In this document: in pieces, positions 181-25,061 of the stretch
Position numbering within the stretch: position 1 is the first letter of the stretch
How the letters are laid out: each line of letters starts with the position of its first letter
Program-made: the position numbers and the translations under genes
The notes under the pieces: generated by a model
What the model was told of the DNA's origin: nothing
Seen by the model: only the letters and a program-made list of their open reading frames with translations
Databases searched by the model: none
IMG/VR virus record: IMGVR_UViG_3300028809_000062
Span: 1 to 25,061 of that record
Source: a virus
Reading direction: 5' to 3' (one strand)
DNA length: 25,061 bases

Positions 181-568
181 GCTTTCGACACCTGCGGACC
201 TGGAGCGGTGGTGTGAGTTCCTTAGGGGGCTGAAGCTTCCGTTGGAGGTCACTCAGAAGCCGTGGAAGCCAGCGCGCCGGCTTGAATCCAATGCCTACCT
301 GTGGGCGTTCGTCTATAGGCCGCTGGTCGAGGTGGCAGGACATGAAGAGGGCGAGTGGCACGAGTATTTCTGCTGCCGATACTTTGGCGCTGTGCCCTAC
401 ATTCGGATTGACGGGACAGAGGGCGAGCGGCCGGTGCGGACGACCACGAAGAACGAGGCAGGCGAGCGCGAGGTTTTGAAGGGACAGCCGTTTAACGATT
501 TCTTGGTGTTCGTGGAATCGGAGTGTGCCAAGCGTGGTGTGTTCATTGAGAGGCAGGGGGCAGTGTGA
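173..568 (+). CDS. ninB: NinB-like recombination protein
   Basis: Likely a homologue of lambda NinB (Orf), a recombination mediator that binds single-stranded DNA and helps recombinases load in phage crosses. The 131-residue length is close to lambda NinB. The central stretch around residues 38-70 (RLESNAYLWAF, then an acidic and aromatic helix containing EWHEYFCCRYFG) follows the family pattern of a polar helix followed by LWA and a Trp-rich segment. The C-terminal FNDFLVFVESECAKRGV resembles the family's last helix. The GTG start at 173 overlaps the upstream gene, and the stop overlaps the GTG start of the methyltransferase (GTGA). The match is by pattern from memory, so another short DNA-metabolism family remains possible. 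Confidence 0.6.
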   Translation: MAKLSTPADLERWCEFLRGLKLPLEVTQKPWKPARRLESNAYLWAFVYRPLVEVAGHEEGEWHEYFCCRYFGAVPYIRIDGTEGERPVRTTTKNEAGEREVLKGQPFNDFLVFVESECAKRGVFIERQGAV

Positions 569-2331
569 CCGCTTACTACAACGAGATTGAGCCTTACGTG
601 GCCCAGTGGCTTCGTAACCTGATTTCCGAAAACCTGATTGCGCCCGGAGAAGTGGATGAGCGAAGCATTGAGGACGTTAAGCCCGGAGACCTGCGAGGTT
701 TTACGCAGTGTCATTTCTTCGCGGGATTGGGCGGATGGTCTCATGCTCTACGCCTTGCCGGATGGCCAGATGATAAGCCCGTCTGGACTGGCTCATGCCC
801 TTGCCAGCCTTTCAGCGCGGCAGGTAAAGGAACTGGGTTTGACGATCAGCGGCATCTCTGGCCGGCCTGGTTCCATCTCATCCGCGAGTGCCGACCTGCA
901 GTCCTGCTTGGAGAGCAGGTTGCAAGCAAGGACGCAGAGCCTTGGGTCGACCTTGTACACGCTGACCTGGAAAGCGTGGGCTACGCCTTCGGGTGTGTCC
1001 CGTTCCCGGCTGCGGGCGTCGGTGCGCCGCACATCCGAGATCGAAACTACTGGGTGGCCAACACCGAATCACACGGTAGTCGATGCGAAGCCGCGACCGC
1101 CAATCACTTCCGGTCGCAGGCCAACAGACCCGCAAATCAGCGTAGCGGACATTGCGGTTCACCTGGCGGGATGGCCCTCTCCGACCAAGGCGAACGGGGA
1201 TGGCGGTCACCAGATGGGCGAGGCATCTGCAACGGGCCGGCGGCCGGACGGAACGAAGACCCAGGTAACGCTGCCTGGAGTGGCGAAGTTCGCCGGATGG
1301 CCGACTCCGATGGCAGGGACGCCAGCGCAGAACGGCAACAACGCAGCGGGGAACAACGACAGCAGCCGGCGAACGGTGGCGCTTTCCGGCTGGGGTACGC
1401 CGCTGACGAATCATGCGAACGGATCGCCAGAAGCGTTCCTGGAGCGGAAGCGCCGCAGCATGGCGAAGGGTTCGCAATCGATGGGAGTGTGCCTTTCGGA
1501 CTTGAACATGCAGGTTCAGGCGTGGCTGCCGGGCCCGGCCCGCTACACGGCTTCTGGCGAGCTGCTGACTGGCTGCTCTGCCGGGATGGAAAGTGGAGGC
1601 CAGTTATCGCCACACATGTCGCGCTGGTTGATGGGTTATCCGGTACAGTGGGATACCTGCGCGCCAAGCGCGAAACCGAAGAAAAGGTAAGCCCACATGC
1701 CTCGACCGATGATTCCGACGCCGCCGAAGTTTTGCCATCACTGCGGGGTTCAACTGACGCGAAAGACGATCAACGGGAGGATGGAAGATCGCGGGGTATT
1801 CCTACGCAGGATCTACTGCAATCGGCAGTGCATGGCGCTTGCGATGGTCAAGGAAACCTGCACCAGCAAGAGTCACACGCGGATGAAGGCGCATCGCCAA
1901 GTGAAGCCGGCATGCCAGAACTGCGGAAAGACGGGAAAGCTGCACGTCCATCACCGGGACGAGAACCCTTCCAACAATTCGCCGTCGAACTTGATGACAT
2001 TGTGTCCCTCTTGCCATCGTCTTTGTCACTCGCCGCGCATGATGGCCGACGGATTGACGCCGAAGCCTTGCGCGCACTGTGCGAATCCATCTGTTCGGCA
2101 GGGTCTGTGCGGTACGCACCTGAGCAGGCTCAAGCGGTATGGGCATCCCTTGGCCAAGAAGCGAAAGACCGCATCGGGCTGGGTTTTGATGTACGAGCGT
2201 GGCGGAAGCTGGTTTTCCAGCCCCTAAGCACAGGGATACCCGGCCGCGTGGGACGACTGCGCGCCTACGGAAACGCGATCGTCCCGCAAGAAGCGGCCGA
2301 GTTCATCGGCGCCGTGATGGAGTGCGCATGA
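565..2331 (+). CDS. DNA (cytosine-5) methyltransferase with overprinted interior
   Basis: Transfers a methyl group from SAM to C5 of cytosine. It may protect phage DNA from host restriction. Motif I (FFAGLGG, residues 51-57), motif IV with the catalytic Cys (PCQPFS, Cys80), a motif VI variant (GEQV, 116-119) and a motif VIII-like segment (APHIRDRNYWVA, 154-165) are all present in the first 170 residues. Motif X (RLRAYGNAIVPQ) occurs only at residues 564-575. Between them the frame is open but rich in Gly, Arg, Ser and Gln. It is overlapped in the +2 frame by two genes (656-1690 and 1697-2227), whose third codon positions look more natural than this frame's. A decayed second copy of motif X lies at about residue 355. 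The GTG start follows the GGGGG run at 556-560. Whether the full 588-residue product folds, or the enzyme is broken by the HNH insertion, is unresolved. Confidence 0.8.
   Translation: MTAYYNEIEPYVAQWLRNLISENLIAPGEVDERSIEDVKPGDLRGFTQCHFFAGLGGWSHALRLAGWPDDKPVWTGSCPCQPFSAAGKGTGFDDQRHLWPAWFHLIRECRPAVLLGEQVASKDAEPWVDLVHADLESVGYAFGCVPFPAAGVGAPHIRDRNYWVANTESHGSRCEAATANHFRSQANRPANQRSGHCGSPGGMALSDQGERGWRSPDGRGICNGPAAGRNEDPGNAAWSGEVRRMADSDGRDASAERQQRSGEQRQQPANGGAFRLGYAADESCERIARSVPGAEAPQHGEGFAIDGSVPFGLEHAGSGVAAGPGPLHGFWRAADWLLCRDGKWRPVIATHVALVDGLSGTVGYLRAKRETEEKVSPHASTDDSDAAEVLPSLRGSTDAKDDQREDGRSRGIPTQDLLQSAVHGACDGQGNLHQQESHADEGASPSEAGMPELRKDGKAARPSPGREPFQQFAVELDDIVSLLPSSLSLAAHDGRRIDAEALRALCESICSAGSVRYAPEQAQAVWASLGQEAKDRIGLGFDVRAWRKLVFQPLSTGIPGRVGRLRAYGNAIVPQEAAEFIGAVMECA
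656..1690 (+). CDS. GWPTP-repeat phage protein overprinted on methyltransferase gene
   Basis: A 344-residue protein read in the +2 frame inside the methyltransferase gene. I recognise the family as a phage protein of unknown function that travels with cytosine methyltransferases. It has SLSARQVKELGLTISG near the N-terminus, then QSLGSTLYTLTW and SRLRASVRRTSE, four repeats around GWPTP (GWPTP, GWPSP, GWPTP, GWGTP), and a C-terminus with MSRWLMGYPVQWDTCAPS. I prefer ATG 656 because GGAG at 646-649 sits six bases upstream; TTG 638 would add six residues. Third codon positions are mostly G or C. The GWPTP codons are the same bases that encode WVANTE and MADSDG in the methyltransferase frame, so conservation of one frame may partly drive the other. 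It ends seven bases before the HNH gene. Function unknown. Confidence 0.7.
   Translation: MSEALRTLSPETCEVLRSVISSRDWADGLMLYALPDGQMISPSGLAHALASLSARQVKELGLTISGISGRPGSISSASADLQSCLESRLQARTQSLGSTLYTLTWKAWATPSGVSRSRLRASVRRTSEIETTGWPTPNHTVVDAKPRPPITSGRRPTDPQISVADIAVHLAGWPSPTKANGDGGHQMGEASATGRRPDGTKTQVTLPGVAKFAGWPTPMAGTPAQNGNNAAGNNDSSRRTVALSGWGTPLTNHANGSPEAFLERKRRSMAKGSQSMGVCLSDLNMQVQAWLPGPARYTASGELLTGCSAGMESGGQLSPHMSRWLMGYPVQWDTCAPSAKPKKR
1052..1402 (+). repeat. Four dispersed copies of a GWPTP-encoding 15-base motif
   Basis: Copies lie at 1052-1066, 1169-1183, 1295-1309 and 1388-1402, with a common core like GGNTGGCCNACNCCG. The fourth copy is the most diverged. They encode GWPTP-type pentapeptides in the +2 frame. 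In the methyltransferase frame they encode WVANTE or MADSD-like pieces, the first of which follows methyltransferase motif VIII. Spacing is 117, 126 and 93 bases, all multiples of three. Confidence 0.6.
1633..1668 (+). repeat. Upstream copy of dual-coded C-terminal segment
   Basis: This segment matches 2233-2268 at an offset of exactly 600 bases. Over 1631-1670 against 2231-2270 I count 26 of 40 identical positions. In the +2 frame this copy encodes the intact GYPVQWDTCAP ending of the GWPTP-repeat protein. In the methyltransferase frame it encodes DGLSGTVGYLRAK, a degraded version of the motif X lead-in. Confidence 0.6.
1697..2227 (+). CDS. HNH endonuclease with zinc-binding cysteine pairs
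   Basis: A 176-residue HNH nuclease, probably a homing-type or free-standing phage endonuclease. The N-terminus has a zinc-ribbon-like set (Cys13, Cys16, Cys41, Cys45). The HNH core has CQNC at 73-76, HVHH at 83-86, Asn98 in SNLMTLC and CPSCH at 103-107. The tail has CAHC at 125-128 followed by GLCGTHLSRLKRYG, a motif common at the ends of phage HNH proteins. ATG 1697 follows an AAAAGG site and lies seven bases after the previous stop. The gene lies wholly inside the methyltransferase reading frame, and its TAA abuts the downstream copy of a duplicated segment, so it looks inserted. The methyltransferase frame stays open across all of it. Confidence 0.8.
   Translation: MPRPMIPTPPKFCHHCGVQLTRKTINGRMEDRGVFLRRIYCNRQCMALAMVKETCTSKSHTRMKAHRQVKPACQNCGKTGKLHVHHRDENPSNNSPSNLMTLCPSCHRLCHSPRMMADGLTPKPCAHCANPSVRQGLCGTHLSRLKRYGHPLAKKRKTASGWVLMYERGGSWFSSP
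2233..2268 (+). repeat. Downstream copy of dual-coded C-terminal segment
   Basis: Partner of 1633-1668 at a 600-base offset. Here the methyltransferase frame is intact (GIPGRVGRLRAYGN, motif X). The +2 frame holds a headless remnant of the GWPTP-repeat protein ending (GYPAAWDDCAPTETRSSRKK), cut off by the HNH gene's stop at 2225-2227. Confidence 0.6.
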
Positions 2332-17219: not shown

Positions 17220-18878
17220 GGATGGTTTGTCTCAGCCTCCACGGACACGATCACCTTCAACGAGGCGCCGCCTGTTGGGGTCAACAATGTCGTGATCAAT
17301 GAGTTTGCGGCCGGCGCTGTTGGCGGGACGGACGTTTTCGCCTTGGGCGCGTGGTCAAACTTCTATGGGTACCCACGGGAGATAGAGTTCTTCGGTGACC
17401 GCCTGTTCTTTGCCAGCACGCCCGCCGACAGTCAGGCGATATGGGGCTCCTGCATCGGCGACTACACCAACTTCGGCCGGTCGTCGCCCATCGTCGACAG
17501 CGACTCAGTGTCGTTCGTGATAAACAGCCGGCAGGTCAACACGGTCAAGGACCTGGTGCCGCTGGACAACCTGCTGATCCTGACCACCGCCAGCGAGAAC
17601 AAGATGACCGGCAGCGCGGACGATGTCATCACTCCGTCGACCATCGGCGTCAAGAACCAGGGCAACAGCGGCACGGGTGACGTGCCCGCCAAGGTCATCG
17701 GCGAGTCCGCCATCTTCGTTCAGGAGGAAGGGCAGAAGATCCGTGACTTGGGGTACCAGTTCGAGAAAGATGGATTCCGCGGAAACGAGATCAGCATCTG
17801 GGCCGAGCATCTTTTCTATGGCTACACGATCGAGAACGTGGCCCACTGGAAGGCGCCGTGGTCCGTGCTGATCTTCACGCGCGACGACGGCGTACAGGTT
17901 GGGTGCACGTACCTGCCTGAGCAGGAGGTCGTGGGCTTCCACTGGCACGACACCGACGGGAAATGGATGGATAGCTGCAGCCTTCCGGGCAAGAAGGAAA
18001 GCGAGTTGTACGCGCTGAGTCAGCGTGTGATTGACGGCGAGACGGTCCAGTACATCGAACAGCAGGAGACCACCAGGTTCGCGACCGAGTCAGACATGGT
18101 CTACATGGACGCAGCGGTGACCTACGACGGCCGCAACACGACGGCGACCACGGTCGGCCTGACGACGGGCGGCGGGTGGACGGAGGACGATCTGCTGACC
18201 ATCACCGCGTCGGCATCGATCTTCACGGCCGTGACGGACATCGGCGATGCTCTCCTGCTGACTGCGCCTACGGGTGAGTCGGTGCAGGTCATCATCGACG
18301 CGTACACCAGCGGAACGGTGGTGCAGGGGTATTCCGTTGGCACGGTACCGACGGTGTTCCGCACCGGTACGACGACGAGTTGGACGTTCCAGCGCGACAC
18401 GATCGGGGGCCTGTGGCACCTAGAGGGCAAGATGGTCAGCGTGCTGCGTGACGCTGCGGTGGCTGGCCCCTTCCTGGTGGAAGAGGGGCAGATCACGCTG
18501 GACACGCCGGGCGGCGTGGTGCATGTCGGCCTGGGCTACGTGGCGCAGGTGGAAACGCTGGAGTTGAACAGCCCCGGCAATTCCTCGCTGCGGGATCAGA
18601 ACAAGCTCGCTTTCGATGCGCGCGTGCTGCTGCTGGCGTCTCGCGGCGTGTATGCCTACAACCCTGCCGTTCCGGACGATGAAGGATTCCCCGTCGAGGG
18701 TAGGCAGTTCGAGAACTACGGGCAGCCGCCCTTCCTGAAGTCGGGCCAGTACGATTGCAAGATCACGGCCGGCTGGGGCGTGGACAACGGGCGCATCGGC
18801 TTCCGGCAGACCGACCCGCTGCCCATGGAGATCCTGAGCATCACCACGAAGGCTGCCGCCAGCGGGAAACTGGGGTGA
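17211..18878 (+). CDS. Tail tubular protein B (T7 gp12-like), C-terminal part
   Basis: A 555-residue ORF that resumes the interrupted tail nozzle protein. After MAQ, residues GWFVSASTDTITFNEAPP complete the small domain begun upstream. The family segments LGAWSNFYGYPREIEFFGDR, SNRL-type FASTPADSQAIWGSC, AEHLFYGYTIENVAHWKAPW and a C-terminal QFENYGQPPFLKSGQYDCK follow. ATG 17211 is supplied by the inserted element, with a weak AAAGG or AGGG upstream. Joined to the first part at the CAG codon the protein would be 979 residues. The stop overlaps the gp13-like GTG. Confidence 0.85.
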   Translation: MAQGWFVSASTDTITFNEAPPVGVNNVVINEFAAGAVGGTDVFALGAWSNFYGYPREIEFFGDRLFFASTPADSQAIWGSCIGDYTNFGRSSPIVDSDSVSFVINSRQVNTVKDLVPLDNLLILTTASENKMTGSADDVITPSTIGVKNQGNSGTGDVPAKVIGESAIFVQEEGQKIRDLGYQFEKDGFRGNEISIWAEHLFYGYTIENVAHWKAPWSVLIFTRDDGVQVGCTYLPEQEVVGFHWHDTDGKWMDSCSLPGKKESELYALSQRVIDGETVQYIEQQETTRFATESDMVYMDAAVTYDGRNTTATTVGLTTGGGWTEDDLLTITASASIFTAVTDIGDALLLTAPTGESVQVIIDAYTSGTVVQGYSVGTVPTVFRTGTTTSWTFQRDTIGGLWHLEGKMVSVLRDAAVAGPFLVEEGQITLDTPGGVVHVGLGYVAQVETLELNSPGNSSLRDQNKLAFDARVLLLASRGVYAYNPAVPDDEGFPVEGRQFENYGQPPFLKSGQYDCKITAGWGVDNGRIGFRQTDPLPMEILSITTKAAASGKLG

Positions 18879-19342
18879 AGGTCGACATCGTCCCGGCGAC
18901 CGAGGAGCATGCCCGCGTCATCGCCGCCAACCCGCGCGAGGCGGACGCGGACGAGGTCCGGGCATCCTGCGGCCTGTCCGTGGGCTGGGCGCTGCGGTAC
19001 GGCCTACGCAAGTCGACGAAGGTCTGGACCGCGATCATGGATGGGGAGCCGGTCTGCATGTTCGGCGTCACCCTGACCAGCGCGATCACCGGTACCGGTT
19101 CGGTCTGGTGCTTGGGCTCCAAGGCCATGGACCGGAAGGACGTGCGCCGGGAGTTCGTGCGTCATTCCCCGCATGTGCTGCAGGCGGTGCAGGAGCGCTT
19201 CCCCGGCGCGCTGTTCAACTGGGTGGATGTGCGCAACAATGCGGCCATTCGCTGGCTGGAGTGGATGGGCTTCACGGTCATGGATCCGCGCCCTGTTGGC
19301 CGAAACGGCGAACTGTTCCGACCCTTCTATATCAGGAGTTGA
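18875..19342 (+). CDS. T7 gp13-like protein (GNAT-type fold)
   Basis: A 155-residue member of the T7 gp13-like family (DUF2833-type), needed for virion assembly and thought to adopt an acetyltransferase-like fold. VDIVPATEEHARVIA at the N-terminus, an AIMDGEPVCMFGVTL strand pair, and WVDVRNNAAIRWLEWMGFTV near the end, the last very like the acetyl-CoA-side helix of GNAT enzymes. GTG 18875 overlaps the tube-protein stop. Position after tube protein B and before the gp14-like gene matches T7 order. No evidence that it acetylates anything. Confidence 0.75.
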   Translation: MKVDIVPATEEHARVIAANPREADADEVRASCGLSVGWALRYGLRKSTKVWTAIMDGEPVCMFGVTLTSAITGTGSVWCLGSKAMDRKDVRREFVRHSPHVLQAVQERFPGALFNWVDVRNNAAIRWLEWMGFTVMDPRPVGRNGELFRPFYIRS

Positions 19343-19345
19343 CCA

Positions 19346-19828
19346 ATGTGCGGGCCGGCTACTCCATACGTAATTCAAGGCATCATCGCGCTAGGCGGCG
19401 CCGCCTTGGCGGTAGACTCCCAGAACAAGGCGCAGGACTACCAGAACAAGGTCGACGCCAACAATGCGCAGCTTGCGCGCAACCAGGCCGCAGATGCGGC
19501 CGCGCAGGGCGATCTGGAGAGCGAGCGTTCCGCCTGGCGCACCCGGGCTATCGAGGGACAGCAGCGCGCGGCCATTGCGGCGCAGGGCATCGATTCCGAG
19601 TTTGGCACCCCGCAGGAGCTGCTGGGCGAAACGGCGCTGTTTGGCGAGATGGAGCAGCAGCAGATCCGACTGGACGCCGCACGCCGGGCCTGGGGATTCA
19701 GCGCTGACGCGCGAAATACCGAAAACCAGAACCGGGCCAGTCGGTTCGCCACGAAGTCGAAGAACAACGCCACGATCATCGGCGGCCTGATGCAGGCTGG
19801 TAACTCCTTCGCCAATATGGGGGGCTGA
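19346..19828 (+). CDS. T7 gp14-like internal virion protein
   Basis: A 160-residue protein of the gp14-like internal core group. The short N-terminus MCGPATPYVIQGIIALGGAA includes a hydrophobic helix, then a long Gln- and Ala-rich helical region (DYQNKVDANNAQLARNQAA, WRTRAIEGQQRAAIAAQG) and a C-terminal Gly-rich helix. In T7 this protein is ejected and forms a pore in the outer membrane. CAGGAG precedes ATG 19346 by about eight bases. The neighbouring gp13-like and transglycosylase genes support the call. Confidence 0.75.
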   Translation: MCGPATPYVIQGIIALGGAALAVDSQNKAQDYQNKVDANNAQLARNQAADAAAQGDLESERSAWRTRAIEGQQRAAIAAQGIDSEFGTPQELLGETALFGEMEQQQIRLDAARRAWGFSADARNTENQNRASRFATKSKNNATIIGGLMQAGNSFANMGG

Positions 19829-19830
19829 CC

Positions 19831-21999
19831 TTGGTACAGCTAATTCCTCGCCCGAACATCCCGCAGGTCACGGCCGGTGGCATCCCTAGCGTTCGCAACG
19901 AGGCGAGGCTGGACATCAGCGGCCAGCAGCAGGCGATCCAGACCCTGACGCAAGGGGCGCAGGACCTGACCGCCAAGTGGCAGGAGCGCAACGACACCGC
20001 GGCGCTGCTGAAGGCCCGGCGCGAGCTGTCGGACTGGGAGGTCAACACCTTCAGCCCGGCCAACGTTGAGGGAGTGAACAAGTACCGCGGCGGCGAGGCG
20101 CTGAAGGCCGGCGCCGACCTGACCCCGAAGATGGACGAGCAGATCGGCAAGATCCGCGAGAGCCTGACCGGGACGCAGCGCGCGCGCTTCGACGCCATCG
20201 CGGGACAGTGGCGGGACGGCGTGTCCAACCGCCTGAACAACCACATGGATCGGGAGCATTCTCAGTACATCGAGCGCGAGGAAGTCGCGGCGATCGATCG
20301 CGTGTCACAGGATGCAGTTCTGGCCGGCGCCGCCGAGGACTTCGCGCGGCAGGACCAGGTGGCCAACGAGGCCATCGTGATGCGCCAGCGCCAGCTTGCC
20401 AGTCAAGGGTATGCCCCGGACAGCGAGTACAGCCGCGCGGCCACGCGCGAGATGGCAAGTTCGATTCGCGCGCAGACCGTGGCCGGACTGGTGTCCAGCA
20501 AGCCGCTGGAAGCCGCGGCCTACCTGGACAAGTACCGCGAGCAGATGACGCCGGCCGACCGCGTCCGCACGCAGGCGCTGGTGCAGCCGATCCTGGACGA
20601 CGTGCAGGCCGACCGCGACGCGGCATGGGCGATGCAGGGCGGCGTGGACATTCCGCCGGCCGACGTGGCTGCAGTGCCGCGCGGCGCGCCGCCGCCGGCG
20701 ATCGCCAAGATCCTGGACGAGGAGGCCGCGGCCGCAGGCATCCCGAAGGAGTACCTGTATGCGCTGGCCGAGCAGGAGTCGAGCTTCCGCGCCGATGCGG
20801 TGAACCCGGAGGTGCTGGATGATGGCGACCAGGCCACGGGGCTGTTCCAGTACCGCAAGACCAGCGCCGGCGGCATCGACCGCAAGGATGCCCGGGCGAG
20901 CGCGCGGCGCGCGGCGCAGGAGTTCAAGGCACGCATGGCCAAGGGCGGCGCCCAGTTCGCCGTGGCCGCGCACTTCGCGGGTGAGGGGGGTGCGGAGGCG
21001 GTGATCCAGCGCGGACGCACGGCCGAGAATCCGAAGACGACCCGGTACATCCGCGAGGTGGAGGCGCGCGCGGCGCGCTGGCGCGGGAACGGGCCGGCGG
21101 CCGTCATGCCGGCGGCGGCGACCGAGGCCGATGCCTTGACCCGGGCGCAGACCATCACCGATCCCGACCGCCGCGCGCGCGCCATGCGCAAGATCCGGGA
21201 GGACTGGTCGATCCGCGACGCGCGCGAGAACGAACTGAAGAAGCAGCAGGCCGAGAGCGCCTACACCGCTATCCAGCAGAACCCGAACCAGCCATTGCGA
21301 CAAATCCTGGGCGCGGAGGCCTACGGCCGTTTCGAGCGCGAGGGCAAGATCGACGCGCTGGAGAACATCCGCAAGAACGCTATCGAGCGCACATTCGTGC
21401 AGGACGACCCGGTACTGGCGGAGGCGTATTTCCGCGAATCCATCCTCTCGCCCAACACCTTCGCCAAGCGTAATTTCTATGACGCCGACATCGCCAACCG
21501 GCTGTCGACGGACACGCTGCGCCAACTGGTCGCGAGGCAGGCTGACGTGGCCAAGCCGGAGAAGCAGGCCGAGTGGGCGACCGAGGCGCAGCGCATCGAG
21601 ATGGGCTGGTCCCAGCTTGGGCTGGCGCCGAACCAGGACCAGAAGGCGGACAAGAAGACGCGCGAGCAGCGGCGCGATGCCTTCGCCATGCGCTACCGCA
21701 ACGCCGAGAAGGCCTACATCCAGTCGAGTGGGCAGAAGCCTACGCCGCAGCAGGCGGACGCATTGCTGCAGTCGGTCGTGCAGGGCGTGGCGGCCGACAT
21801 GAGCGTGCTGGATGCCAAGCTGACCATGGGCCCCTATGCGGGCGCGCCGGCAGCCTCGTCGGTGGACCTGGCCGCGGGCGTCCTGGCCCCTGAAATGCGG
21901 CGCGAAGCTGTGCAGTCCTACCAAGCGCGCTATGGCGCTTCCCGTACCCCGAGCGACGCCGATATCATCCGGTACTGGCAGCGCAAGGGGATGCAATGA
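19831..21999 (+). CDS. Virion transglycosylase (SLT domain) ejection protein
   Basis: A 722-residue structural protein with an SLT-type transglycosylase domain at about residues 290-410. The catalytic Glu is probably Glu316 in ALAEQESSF, followed by ATGLFQYRKTSAGG and AVAAHFAGEG, the usual second and third motifs. The N-terminal 280 and C-terminal 300 residues are long polar helices. It would be ejected at infection and open the cell wall locally for DNA entry, as T7 gp16 does. TTG 19831 is the start, with GGGGG about ten bases upstream. The stop overlaps the next ATG. Confidence 0.8.
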   Translation: MVQLIPRPNIPQVTAGGIPSVRNEARLDISGQQQAIQTLTQGAQDLTAKWQERNDTAALLKARRELSDWEVNTFSPANVEGVNKYRGGEALKAGADLTPKMDEQIGKIRESLTGTQRARFDAIAGQWRDGVSNRLNNHMDREHSQYIEREEVAAIDRVSQDAVLAGAAEDFARQDQVANEAIVMRQRQLASQGYAPDSEYSRAATREMASSIRAQTVAGLVSSKPLEAAAYLDKYREQMTPADRVRTQALVQPILDDVQADRDAAWAMQGGVDIPPADVAAVPRGAPPPAIAKILDEEAAAAGIPKEYLYALAEQESSFRADAVNPEVLDDGDQATGLFQYRKTSAGGIDRKDARASARRAAQEFKARMAKGGAQFAVAAHFAGEGGAEAVIQRGRTAENPKTTRYIREVEARAARWRGNGPAAVMPAAATEADALTRAQTITDPDRRARAMRKIREDWSIRDARENELKKQQAESAYTAIQQNPNQPLRQILGAEAYGRFEREGKIDALENIRKNAIERTFVQDDPVLAEAYFRESILSPNTFAKRNFYDADIANRLSTDTLRQLVARQADVAKPEKQAEWATEAQRIEMGWSQLGLAPNQDQKADKKTREQRRDAFAMRYRNAEKAYIQSSGQKPTPQQADALLQSVVQGVAADMSVLDAKLTMGPYAGAPAASSVDLAAGVLAPEMRREAVQSYQARYGASRTPSDADIIRYWQRKGMQ

Positions 22000-24900
22000 G
22001 CCAGGACATCTGGGCCGAACTGGAGCAGGAAGACGCGGCCCGCCGGTCGCGTGGCGCAGCGCTGACGGCGCCGCCGGTGCCGCCGGAGACCATGAGCGAG
22101 GCTGTCACCATTGGTGCGCGCCGCGGTATTCCCGCGGGCGCGGTGGTGCAGGACCTGCCCCGATACAAGCAGCTGGACGAGCTCGACGCCGTACAGGAGG
22201 CCGCGACGCGGCAGCCGGCGCTGGGCGCCTGGCTGATCGACCCGACCAACGTGGCGCTGTCCAAGGGCGAGTTGCCGCAGGTCTCCCAGCTTGCCGAGTC
22301 GGTGGCCAAGACCAAGACCACGCAGGACCGGCCCTACGACTGGGGTCCGTGGGGCTGGGGTCAGTTCGTCGGCGACCTGGCGGGCAGCTTCGGCTCGAGC
22401 TTCGGCGCCACCTTCGGGCGCGCGCTGGAGGGTCAGGCCGACTTGCGCGGCTCCACGCATCGCACGCTTGACCGTCTGACGCGCGGCGCGCTCGGCGACA
22501 CCATCGGCGACTTCATGGCCGACCCGCTGAACCAGCGAGGCGGGCGCGGCGTCGGCCTGAGTAACGACGGCCTGCGCACGTCCGGGCAGCGGATCCAGGA
22601 TGCTTTCGGATTCACCCCGCAGCAGCAGTCCACGGCCACCGATGTGGCGGGCGGCCTTGGCACGCTGGGCGCCCAGATCGCCACGTTCGCGGCCACCCGC
22701 GGCGCTGGATCCACCACGCTCAACCTGGGCCTTGGCGCCAATCAGGGCGCCGACATGGCGCGCGAGGCTGGCGCCGAGGGCACGGCTGGCGGCGATGCCG
22801 CGGTGCTGGCGTCGGCGCCGGTGGCTGCAGCGCTGGAGCGTATCGGTCTGAACCGCCTCTTGCAGCGCGCGCCGCCGGGGATCAACAACGCCGTGGGCCG
22901 CTGGATCACGGACAAGCTGATCGCCGCCGGCATCGAGGGCACGCAGGAAGCTGCCGAGCAGTTCACCTACAACTTGATCGCCCAACAGGCCTACAACCCG
23001 GACCAGGCGCTGACGGAAGGGCTGCCGGAGAACTTCGAACTGGGCGCCTGGGTGGGTGCGATCGCGCGCGCCGCCACGGGCGCACGGTTCGCCAAGACGC
23101 AAGCCGAGCGCGAGGGCGAGCTGCTGGATGGCATCACGCTGTCGGCCAGCGCCGTTGCGTTGCGCGAGCGCAACCCCGAGAAGTTCCGCGAACTGGCGCA
23201 GAAACTGGCGGCGTCTGGCGCAGATCGTGTGTATCTGGACGGCGCCGAGGCGGCCACCTATTTCCAGTCCGCCGGTCTGGATCCGGCGCAGTTCATGGAC
23301 GCCGACGCCCTGACCGACGCCGCGGTGGCGGGCACGGACGTGGCCATCCCGATGGAGCAGTGGATCACCGCCATTGCCCCGGAGCACGGCAAGGCGCTGT
23401 CCAAGTTCGCGCGCCTGACGCCGTCTGGCATGAGCCGCGCCGATGTCGAGCAGTTCAACGACCGCGCGGAGGCTGAGTTCGATGCCTTCCTGCAGAGCGT
23501 TTCGCGGGAATCCGAACCCGCGGACACCAGCCAGCAGGTATACGAGGACGTGCTGGGCCAGCTGCTGGGCACGGGCATGAACCGTCAGGCGGCCGAGGCC
23601 AATGCGGAACTGCATCGCCGCTTCTGGCAGACCCAGGCGCAGCGGTCAGGCCGCAGCGCGATGGACCTCTATCAGCCCTACGGCCTGCGCATCCAGCGCG
23701 AAGACCCGGCCGGCATGGCGATCCTGCGCGAGCGTCCGAGTGCGGACGCGGCCGTCGACTCGCTGCTGGGCCGGCTGGTGACGGGCGACATTCCGACCGA
23801 GACCCGGGCCATGGGCCCGTCGCTGGTCGAGTGGCTGGCCGATCAGGGTGGCATCAACGATCCGGCGATGGCCGGCGAGCTTCGTCGCCTGAACGAGTCC
23901 GACCGGGTGAACCGCCGCGGCAAGCCCAAGCTGGTGACCAAGCTGGGCAAGCCCCTGGATCGAGCGCGCGAGCTTGCCGTCGAGGCCGGCTACCTGCCGG
24001 AAGGCGCTGACCTGAATGCGCTACTGGACGCGATCACGCAGGAGGTGGACGGCGGGCCGGCCATTCGCGTGGGCGGCGACCAGGTGCTGGCCGACCAGCG
24101 CGCCATGCTGCTGGAGGCGGGCGATCTGCTGAACGAGGCCGGCGTCGACCCGGCCGATCGCGAGGCTGCGCGCCGGTTCCTCGTTGGCGACACGCAGACG
24201 CGGTTCTACCAGGACGCCCTGCCCGAACAGGACGAGGTGGCCGCGCTGAAGGCCCGCATCGCCGCGCTCGAGCAGGAGCTGCGCACGGACGAACTGACCG
24301 GCCTGCGCAACCGCCGCGCGTTCAACGAGGACGAGGCGCTGGGCTGGGAGGGCGTGATGGCCTTCGACATGGACGGCCTGACCGCACTGAATGCCATGGG
24401 TCACGAGGTCGGTGATGCCGCGCTGCGCGCCATCGGCGAGGTCATGCTGGCCAGCGAGACCGCGACCGCGCGCTTCTATCACACGTCCGGCGACGAGTTC
24501 TACGGCCGCGCCACGACGATGGCCGAGGCGCAGGAACTGGCGCAGATGATCCAGGACAAGCTGGAGTCTGTGGACCTGGACATCGTGATGGCCGGTCCTG
24601 ACGGTCAAACCCGTGACTTCACCTATCGAGGCATCGGCGTCAGCCGAGGCGCAGGAGCAACCCCCAATGAAGCAGACCAAGTCGCCATCCGAAACAAAGC
24701 CGAGCGCGAAGCCTCCGGCGTCCGACAGGCGAAGGGAGATCCGGGGCCTCTTCGGCGCCTCATCGATCGACGAGCTGAAGGCAATCGGGACCGTCGTCAG
24801 CGTGTCGATCCACAATCGGAAGGATCACCCGAAGCGTCGGAAGACGGACTGACGGAGTTCAACCAGGACGATGCCAGCGACTCTATCCGACGCGGCTGGA

Positions 24901-25061
24901 TCAACTTTGCTGACCGTGCCGCCGTCACCATCGGGCTGACCCCGAAGGCGGATCTTTCCACCTTCATCCACGAGAGCGGGCATTTCTTCCTGGAGGTGAT
25001 GGGCGACCTTGCGCGTGATCCGAATGCGCCGCAGGACATCGTCGACGACTATGCCGCCATC
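21996..25061 (+). CDS. Giant polyvalent ejection-type protein with GGDEF domain and HExxH motif (5' part)
   Basis: Open from ATG 21996 (ATGA overlap) to the window edge, 1022 codons with no stop. The first 370 residues are Gly- and Ala-rich, with segments such as AGIEGTQEAAEQFTYNLIAQ that resemble phage large polyvalent proteins. A coiled coil (VAALKARIAALEQEL) leads into a GGDEF domain at about residues 765-905: DELTGLRNRRAF (765-776), the metal-binding FDMDG with NAMGHEVGDAAL, the signature SGDEF (831-835), and a GIGVSRGAGATPNEADQVAI end. The inhibitory RxxD site is absent (RFYH instead). Near the window end FIHESGHFFLE gives HExxH at 992-996, a zincin-like motif. Position suggests delivery into the host with the ejection proteins. 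Diguanylate cyclase activity is inferred, not shown. Confidence 0.8.
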   Translation, partial: MSQDIWAELEQEDAARRSRGAALTAPPVPPETMSEAVTIGARRGIPAGAVVQDLPRYKQLDELDAVQEAATRQPALGAWLIDPTNVALSKGELPQVSQLAESVAKTKTTQDRPYDWGPWGWGQFVGDLAGSFGSSFGATFGRALEGQADLRGSTHRTLDRLTRGALGDTIGDFMADPLNQRGGRGVGLSNDGLRTSGQRIQDAFGFTPQQQSTATDVAGGLGTLGAQIATFAATRGAGSTTLNLGLGANQGADMAREAGAEGTAGGDAAVLASAPVAAALERIGLNRLLQRAPPGINNAVGRWITDKLIAAGIEGTQEAAEQFTYNLIAQQAYNPDQALTEGLPENFELGAWVGAIARAATGARFAKTQAEREGELLDGITLSASAVALRERNPEKFRELAQKLAASGADRVYLDGAEAATYFQSAGLDPAQFMDADALTDAAVAGTDVAIPMEQWITAIAPEHGKALSKFARLTPSGMSRADVEQFNDRAEAEFDAFLQSVSRESEPADTSQQVYEDVLGQLLGTGMNRQAAEANAELHRRFWQTQAQRSGRSAMDLYQPYGLRIQREDPAGMAILRERPSADAAVDSLLGRLVTGDIPTETRAMGPSLVEWLADQGGINDPAMAGELRRLNESDRVNRRGKPKLVTKLGKPLDRARELAVEAGYLPEGADLNALLDAITQEVDGGPAIRVGGDQVLADQRAMLLEAGDLLNEAGVDPADREAARRFLVGDTQTRFYQDALPEQDEVAALKARIAALEQELRTDELTGLRNRRAFNEDEALGWEGVMAFDMDGLTALNAMGHEVGDAALRAIGEVMLASETATARFYHTSGDEFYGRATTMAEAQELAQMIQDKLESVDLDIVMAGPDGQTRDFTYRGIGVSRGAGATPNEADQVAIRNKAEREASGVRQAKGDPGPLRRLIDRRAEGNRDRRQRVDPQSEGSPEASEDGLTEFNQDDASDSIRRGWINFADRAAVTIGLTPKADLSTFIHESGHFFLEVMGDLARDPNAPQDIVDDYAAI

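What the first reader, a model, noticed from the sequence alone, without database searches (positions are those of the whole stretch)
24240..24730. GGDEF diguanylate cyclase domain inside a phage ejection-type protein
Residues 765-905 carry the full domain layout: coiled coil, DELTGLRNRRAF, FDMDG, NAMGHEVGDAAL, SGDEF, and a GIGVS-type end. SGDEF variants can be active, and the feedback RxxD site is missing. A virion-delivered cyclase could raise c-di-GMP in the infected cell at once and change motility, biofilm state or phage defence. I do not know of a characterised example.
Basis: partly seen in the sequence, partly recalled or inferred. Interest (0 to 1): 0.85.

Follow-up and report, generated by a model that had tools for sequence, protein, structure and literature searches.

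The report
Swappable GGDEF domain in phage ejection protein
A phage's giant "arrive-with-the-DNA" protein carries a real but drifting copy of a bacterial signalling-enzyme domain (GGDEF) in a region where related phages carry other effector domains or nothing, so the phage may change host c-di-GMP signalling on entry, an idea already published in outline but never tested.

Summary
Residues 764-867 of the last ORF (21996->end) match Pfam GGDEF above its cut-off; AlphaFold2 gives a confident GGDEF fold (pLDDT 93) whose best solved matches are diguanylate cyclases. The coil, DELTG, DMD, N, GH, GD, SGDEF and the later Lys are present; the RxxD feedback site is absent. The complete protein (2220 aa, second contig) is an LPD22 "large polyvalent protein" at the T7-gp16 position, after gp13-like, gp14-like and lysozyme genes. 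GGDEF sits in a variable region just before a conserved HExxH block; relatives carry ADP-ribosyltransferase, acetyltransferase, RNase or nothing there. The domain belongs to a phage-only GGDEF clade including free-standing Yuavirus gp44.

Activity is open. Metal and guanine ligands are kept, and an SGDEF enzyme is known to be active. But the transition-state Lys (PleD K332) is Thr, one loop residue is deleted, Arg446 is not clearly kept, and the score is below NCBI's diguanylate-cyclase cut-off, which three other polyvalent domains pass.

Iyer et al. (2017) already described GGDEF in phage polyvalent proteins and proposed cyclic-nucleotide signalling, so this is a new member of a known, experimentally untested kind. 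Virion packaging, injection and c-di-GMP synthesis remain inferred.

The parts
21996..25061 (+). Large polyvalent / gp16-position ejection protein, N-terminal 1022 aa of 2220 aa (complete in L002 4859-11521, identical over the shared part)
   Evidence: start overlaps stop of the lysozyme gene (ATGA)
22047..22319 (+). LPD22, large polyvalent protein associated domain 22 (residues 18-108)
   Evidence: Pfam PF18834 E 1.2e-12
23004..24212 (+). Conserved block I of the polyvalent scaffold (residues about 337-739)
   Evidence: blastp to PfDIW6, HU1, CP2, Carin1, L015
24222..24281 (+). Helix leading into the GGDEF domain (residues 743-762), coiled-coil-like
   Evidence: AlphaFold2 model helix 4-23
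24285..24713 (+). GGDEF domain (residues 764-906; Pfam match 764-867)
24366..24392 (+). DMDGLTALN: metal ligand D791 (PleD D327), base ligand N799 (N335); K332 position is T796; loop after N799 is one residue short
24411..24416 (+). GD 806-807: guanine-specifying Asp (PleD D344) kept, so not the cGAMP-making Hypr type
24486..24500 (+). SGDEF 831-835 signature
   Evidence: SGDEF enzyme ECA3270 is active (PMC3974145)
24669..24740 (+). C-terminal EADQVAIRNKAEREASGVRQAKGD (residues 892-915), clade motif KAERExSGxRxAxG shared with Yuavirus-type phage GGDEFs; K901 = PleD K442
24891..25061 (+). Start of conserved block II with invariant HExxH (HESGH, 24969-24983), putative zincin metallopeptidase
   Evidence: invariant H, E, H in 30-60 relatives; fold search found no match
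18824..19342 (+). T7 gp13-like protein (weak match)
   Evidence: PF11090 E 0.0068, below cut-off
19346..19828 (+). Internal virion protein, T7 gp14-like
   Evidence: phrog_418 E 2.3e-30; PF24072 E 7.5e-4, below cut-off
19831..21999 (+). Structural lysozyme at gp15 position, SLT transglycosylase domain
   Evidence: PF01464 E 2e-6; phrog_10475

Best explanation
It is a GGDEF domain carried as an interchangeable effector cassette in the large polyvalent ejection protein (T7-gp16 position) of a short-tailed phage. The protein is probably packaged in the head and passed into the cell with the DNA; there the GGDEF module, possibly freed by the neighbouring HExxH block, most likely binds GTP and makes c-di-GMP without product feedback, shifting host signalling at the first moment of infection. 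Shown by computation: the fold, the domain family, the kept metal and guanine ligands, the swapping of this region between effectors, the gene position. Inferred: packaging, injection, release, catalysis, effect on the host.
For: Pfam GGDEF above cut-off. AlphaFold2 pLDDT 93.3 with diguanylate cyclases as best PDB matches. All 16 functional columns match the majority of 23 other phage-contig GGDEFs against 30 of 127 other columns (partly circular, since such columns are conserved everywhere). D327, N335, D344, E370, E371, K442 equivalents kept (roles from PMC7288161); SGDEF enzyme ECA3270 is active (PMC3974145). Region polymorphism: in 60 members scanned ART-PolyVal 13, GNAT 6, PBECR5 5, GGDEF 2, among others; closest scaffold relative L015 carries ART at that position; PfDIW6 has about 5 residues there. 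Gene order gp13-like, gp14-like, lysozyme, large protein, then tail-spike-like gene, as T7 gp13-14-15-16. Phage-only GGDEF clade, support 99/97.
Against: PleD K332, named as transition-state stabiliser (PMC12943098), is T796; a residue is missing between N799 and G802; R446 position is E with an Arg one residue earlier. TIGR00254 score 27.2 is below its cut-off of 37.4, while other polyvalent GGDEFs score 58-62. Long branch in the tree. No proteomics or assay; the HExxH block gave no fold match.
Confidence: 0.42

Rival explanations
1. Degenerate GGDEF: it binds GTP or c-di-GMP but does not cyclise, acting as a nucleotide-sensing or regulatory module of the injected protein, or as a sponge.
For: K332T, loop deletion, R446 not clearly kept; score below NCBI cyclase cut-off; K332 also lost in other polyvalent GGDEFs (L200, L205-L208) while N335 and D344 stay, as expected if binding matters more than catalysis. 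GTP-binding degenerate GGDEFs are known (PMC7288161).
Against: SGDEF signature and both metal ligands are kept, which a pure GTP binder need not keep; the I-site, a usual c-di-GMP binding site, is absent.
Confidence: 0.35
2. Structural filler: a fold reused as a spacer in the ejection protein with no nucleotide function.
For: Fast evolution (long branch); L070 has an even more eroded GGDEF-like domain in the same region.
Against: Catalytic and ligand columns other than K332 and R446 are kept despite at most about 35% identity to the nearest kin; relatives often fill the region with other enzymes.
Confidence: 0.1
3. Cyclic-nucleotide maker aimed at host anti-phage signalling (decoy or interfering cyclic dinucleotide) rather than at motility or biofilm.
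For: Iyer et al. 2017 propose interference with host responses that use similar nucleotides; neighbours in the same region are conflict effectors (ART, RNase).
Against: The guanine-specifying Asp (D344 position) is kept, so c-di-GMP alone is expected, not cGAMP; no direct evidence.
Confidence: 0.1

Closest known systems
GGDEF domains in phage polyvalent proteins (Iyer et al. 2017, PMC5512222), e.g. Acetonema longum prophage protein
   Same: GGDEF in a giant multidomain phage protein of the LPD/effector/HExxH kind, encoded among virion genes; same proposed role
   Different: Here in a gp16-position protein of a short-tailed phage with GGDEF as the only recognised effector, and with an eroded active site; variable region and phage-only clade mapped here
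Yuavirus/Vojvodinavirus free-standing GGDEF (YuA gp44, Bordetella phage FP1/CN1/LK3; PHROG 5594)
   Same: Same GGDEF clade (99/97), S/AGDEF signature, C-terminal KAERExSGxRxAxG motif
   Different: Small separate gene, in YuA next to a putative antirestriction gene, not part of a virion protein; keeps K332 and full loop. LK3 lysogens overproduce biofilm, cause not shown (PMC8471281)
Canonical diguanylate cyclases PleD, WspR, DgcB
   Same: Fold, metal and guanine ligands, helix leading into DxLT
   Different: SGDEF, K332T, loop one residue shorter, R446 shifted, no I-site, no recognised sensor domain
T7 gp16 ejection protein
   Same: Position after gp13-, gp14- and gp15-like genes; very large protein in the ejection operon
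   Different: Homology to gp16 itself not shown (no Pfam or PHROG match to it); transglycosylase lies in the preceding protein here; extra effector region and HExxH block

Membership tests
GGDEF domain family (Pfam PF00990) | Score above the curated cut-off | tested here: met
   39.0 bits against 23.8
GGDEF domain family (Pfam PF00990) | GGDEF/cyclase fold | tested here: met
   pLDDT 93.3; best PDB matches are GGDEF proteins, mostly diguanylate cyclases, down to E 2e-10
Active diguanylate cyclase (TIGR00254 and catalytic residues) | Score above NCBI cut-off | tested here: not met
   27.2 bits against 37.4; L199, L202, L205 pass with 58-62
Active diguanylate cyclase (TIGR00254 and catalytic residues) | Two-metal ligands D327 and E/D370 | tested here: met
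   D791, D833
Active diguanylate cyclase (TIGR00254 and catalytic residues) | Guanine ligands N335 and D344 | tested here: met
   N799, D807; N799 sits next to a one-residue deletion
Active diguanylate cyclase (TIGR00254 and catalytic residues) | K332 transition-state Lys | tested here: not met
   T796
Active diguanylate cyclase (TIGR00254 and catalytic residues) | Phosphate ligands K442 and R446 | tested here: inconclusive
   K901 kept; R446 position is E905, with R904 adjacent
Active diguanylate cyclase (TIGR00254 and catalytic residues) | Makes c-di-GMP from GTP | not testable with these tools
   needs enzyme assay
Hypr GGDEF (cGAMP synthase) | Ser/Thr at PleD D344 | tested here: not met
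   D807
Phage polyvalent protein | LPD-type domain plus unrelated effector domain in one large protein | tested here: met
   LPD22 plus GGDEF in 2220 aa
Phage polyvalent protein | Encoded among virion genes | tested here: met
   portal, capsid, tail, internal virion protein, lysozyme upstream
Phage polyvalent protein | Zincin metallopeptidase domain (common, not obligatory) | tested here: inconclusive
   HExxH invariant in relatives, but model pLDDT 76.8 and no PDB fold match
Phage polyvalent protein | Packaged in the virion and injected | not testable with these tools
   needs proteomics

The most novel reading that the evidence does not exclude
An active, feedback-free diguanylate cyclase is delivered from the virion, so c-di-GMP rises in the infected cell before any phage gene is expressed; phages repeatedly acquire this module in a plug-in effector region of the ejection protein.
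Probability: 0.33. Interest if true: 0.8.

Novelty: new member of a known kind. Interest (0 to 1): 0.45.

Why it matters
If active, it would to my knowledge be the first virion-delivered c-di-GMP enzyme shown to act at entry, and it would make the polyvalent-protein hypothesis testable with one protein of a short-tailed phage. Even if not, the effector region just before the HExxH block is a simple place to discover entry effectors, because empty and filled versions of the same scaffold exist.

Tried and rejected
Selection test on the domain: the only close relative (L002) is identical at nucleotide level over the shared ORF, so no dN/dS. Host: prophages with the scaffold occur in Herminiimonas, Stenotrophomonas, Pseudomonas, Cupriavidus and others at up to about 43-44% identity over most of the region, none close enough to name the host. 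My GGDEF model found none in those 80 prophage loci, so the module is rare. Zincin fold by structure: inconclusive. Hypr/cGAMP idea rejected because D344 is kept. Literature search for a characterised phage diguanylate cyclase gave none in the held library. Virion proteomics of phage AF or Carin1 could not be reached. One search was sent with a wrong frame and repeated; the exact-slot claim was narrowed because in L202 the GGDEF starts after the equivalent of residue about 570 rather than 739.

Full report
Observation. The window is a 25,061-base IMG/VR virus record. Its last ORF starts at 21996 and runs off the end. Residues 764-867 match Pfam GGDEF at E 4.6e-8, or 8.8e-10 when the segment is searched alone. 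A 24-row alignment of phage-contig GGDEFs gives an AlphaFold2 model of residues 740-925 with pLDDT 93.3; Foldseek's best solved structures are PleD, DgcR, SiaD and DgcB, E about 1e-10.

The whole protein. A second contig (L002, IMGVR_UViG_3300028590_000275) carries the same ORF, identical over the shared 3066 bases, and completes it to 2220 aa, followed by a gene that looks like a tail spike (my reading of the translation). It has LPD22 at 18-108. Upstream lie a weak T7 gp13-like gene, a gp14-like internal virion protein and a structural lysozyme; a gp14-like gene, a gp15-like gene and then a larger gp16 gene is the order described for ejection operons (PMC8954989). So the protein is at the gp16 position of a short-tailed phage; portal relatives are Xanthomonas phages such as SAC and CP2 at 53%.

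A variable effector region. Comparison with Xanthomonas phage CP2, Cobetia phage Carin1 and Pseudomonas phages HU1, AF and PfDIW6 shows conserved block I (to about 739) and block II (from about 966), with variable sequence between: about 5 residues in PfDIW6, about 33 in HU1, hundreds in CP2, and a PBECR5 RNase in Carin1. In the closest scaffold relative, L015 (61% in the HExxH region), an ADP-ribosyltransferase starts about 30 residues after block I ends. Scanning 720 residues before HExxH in 60 members found ART-PolyVal 13, GNAT 6, PBECR5 5, LPD3 5, RadC 2, MuF_C 2, PBECR3 1 and GGDEF 2. L070 has an eroded GGDEF-like domain in the same place. Other GGDEFs in the same scaffold (L202, L205, L207, L208) lie in the same variable stretch but, where it could be checked, with a different left boundary, and other scaffolds carry them too (L199, L200, L201, L206).

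Origin of the domain. Trees with and without long rows put the window domain in a phage-only clade with Yuavirus/Vojvodinavirus free-standing GGDEFs and the polyvalent L199, L200 domains (100/99 and 99/97). The window shares the C-terminal motif KAERExSGxRxAxG with the free-standing ones. The L202/L205-L208 domains form a separate clade (100/98), which suggests that phages with this scaffold acquired GGDEF at least twice. The window row is a long branch and only six cellular domains were sampled, so its exact place is unsure.

Is it active? Roles from the literature: D327 and E370 bind metal, N335 and D344 bind guanine, K442 and R446 bind phosphate (PMC7288161), K332 stabilises the transition state (PMC12943098). 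The window keeps D327, E/D370, E371, N335, D344 and K442 but has T at K332, lacks one residue in the loop after N335, and has E at R446 with an Arg one residue earlier. It fails the NCBI diguanylate-cyclase cut-off that L199, L202 and L205 pass. SGDEF itself is no bar: ECA3270 is active (as cited in PMC3974145). K332 is also lost in L200 and L205-L208 while N335 and D344 are kept, which would also fit a GTP-binding role. I give about 0.4 to cyclase activity and 0.35 to a binding-only domain.

Known or new. Iyer et al. 2017 (PMC5512222) reported GGDEF domains in phage polyvalent proteins, with an Acetonema longum prophage example, and suggested they interfere with or use nucleotide signals; they also proposed zincin self-processing. 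Bordetella phage LK3, which has such a gene, gives hyper-biofilm lysogens, cause unproven (PMC8471281). No characterised phage diguanylate cyclase was found in the held library. What is added here: the complete protein, the effector region with its empty and filled states, the phage-only GGDEF clade, and a residue-level reason for doubt about activity.

Noticed in passing
window 565-2331, 638-1690, 1697-2227: Possible dual coding: a cytosine methylase ORF (565-2331; PF00145) overlaps in another frame an ORF (638-1690) whose translation is 40-46% identical over nearly its whole length to stretches of other phages annotated as cytosine methyltransferase, and then an HNH endonuclease ORF (1697-2227; PF01844).
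   Followed up: partly
L070 residues 743-919: Strongly eroded GGDEF-like domain (RHGGDEM) in the same region of a homologous protein, aligned without a break to the window protein.
   Followed up: partly
alignment A3 (L015-L094): RadC domains occur in two phage proteins of this scaffold, although Iyer et al. [quoted passage not shown]
   Followed up: no
window 17265-17840: Differences between the window and L002 are concentrated in the N-terminal part of one tail gene (59 of 61), while the following 7 kb are nearly identical, suggesting recombination in the tail gene.
   Followed up: no
BFVD entry A0A516M277_1: A 1143-residue piece of an unnamed giant viral protein holds the best structural match to the window domain (E 5.7e-17, 35% identity), probably another polyvalent GGDEF.
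   Followed up: no
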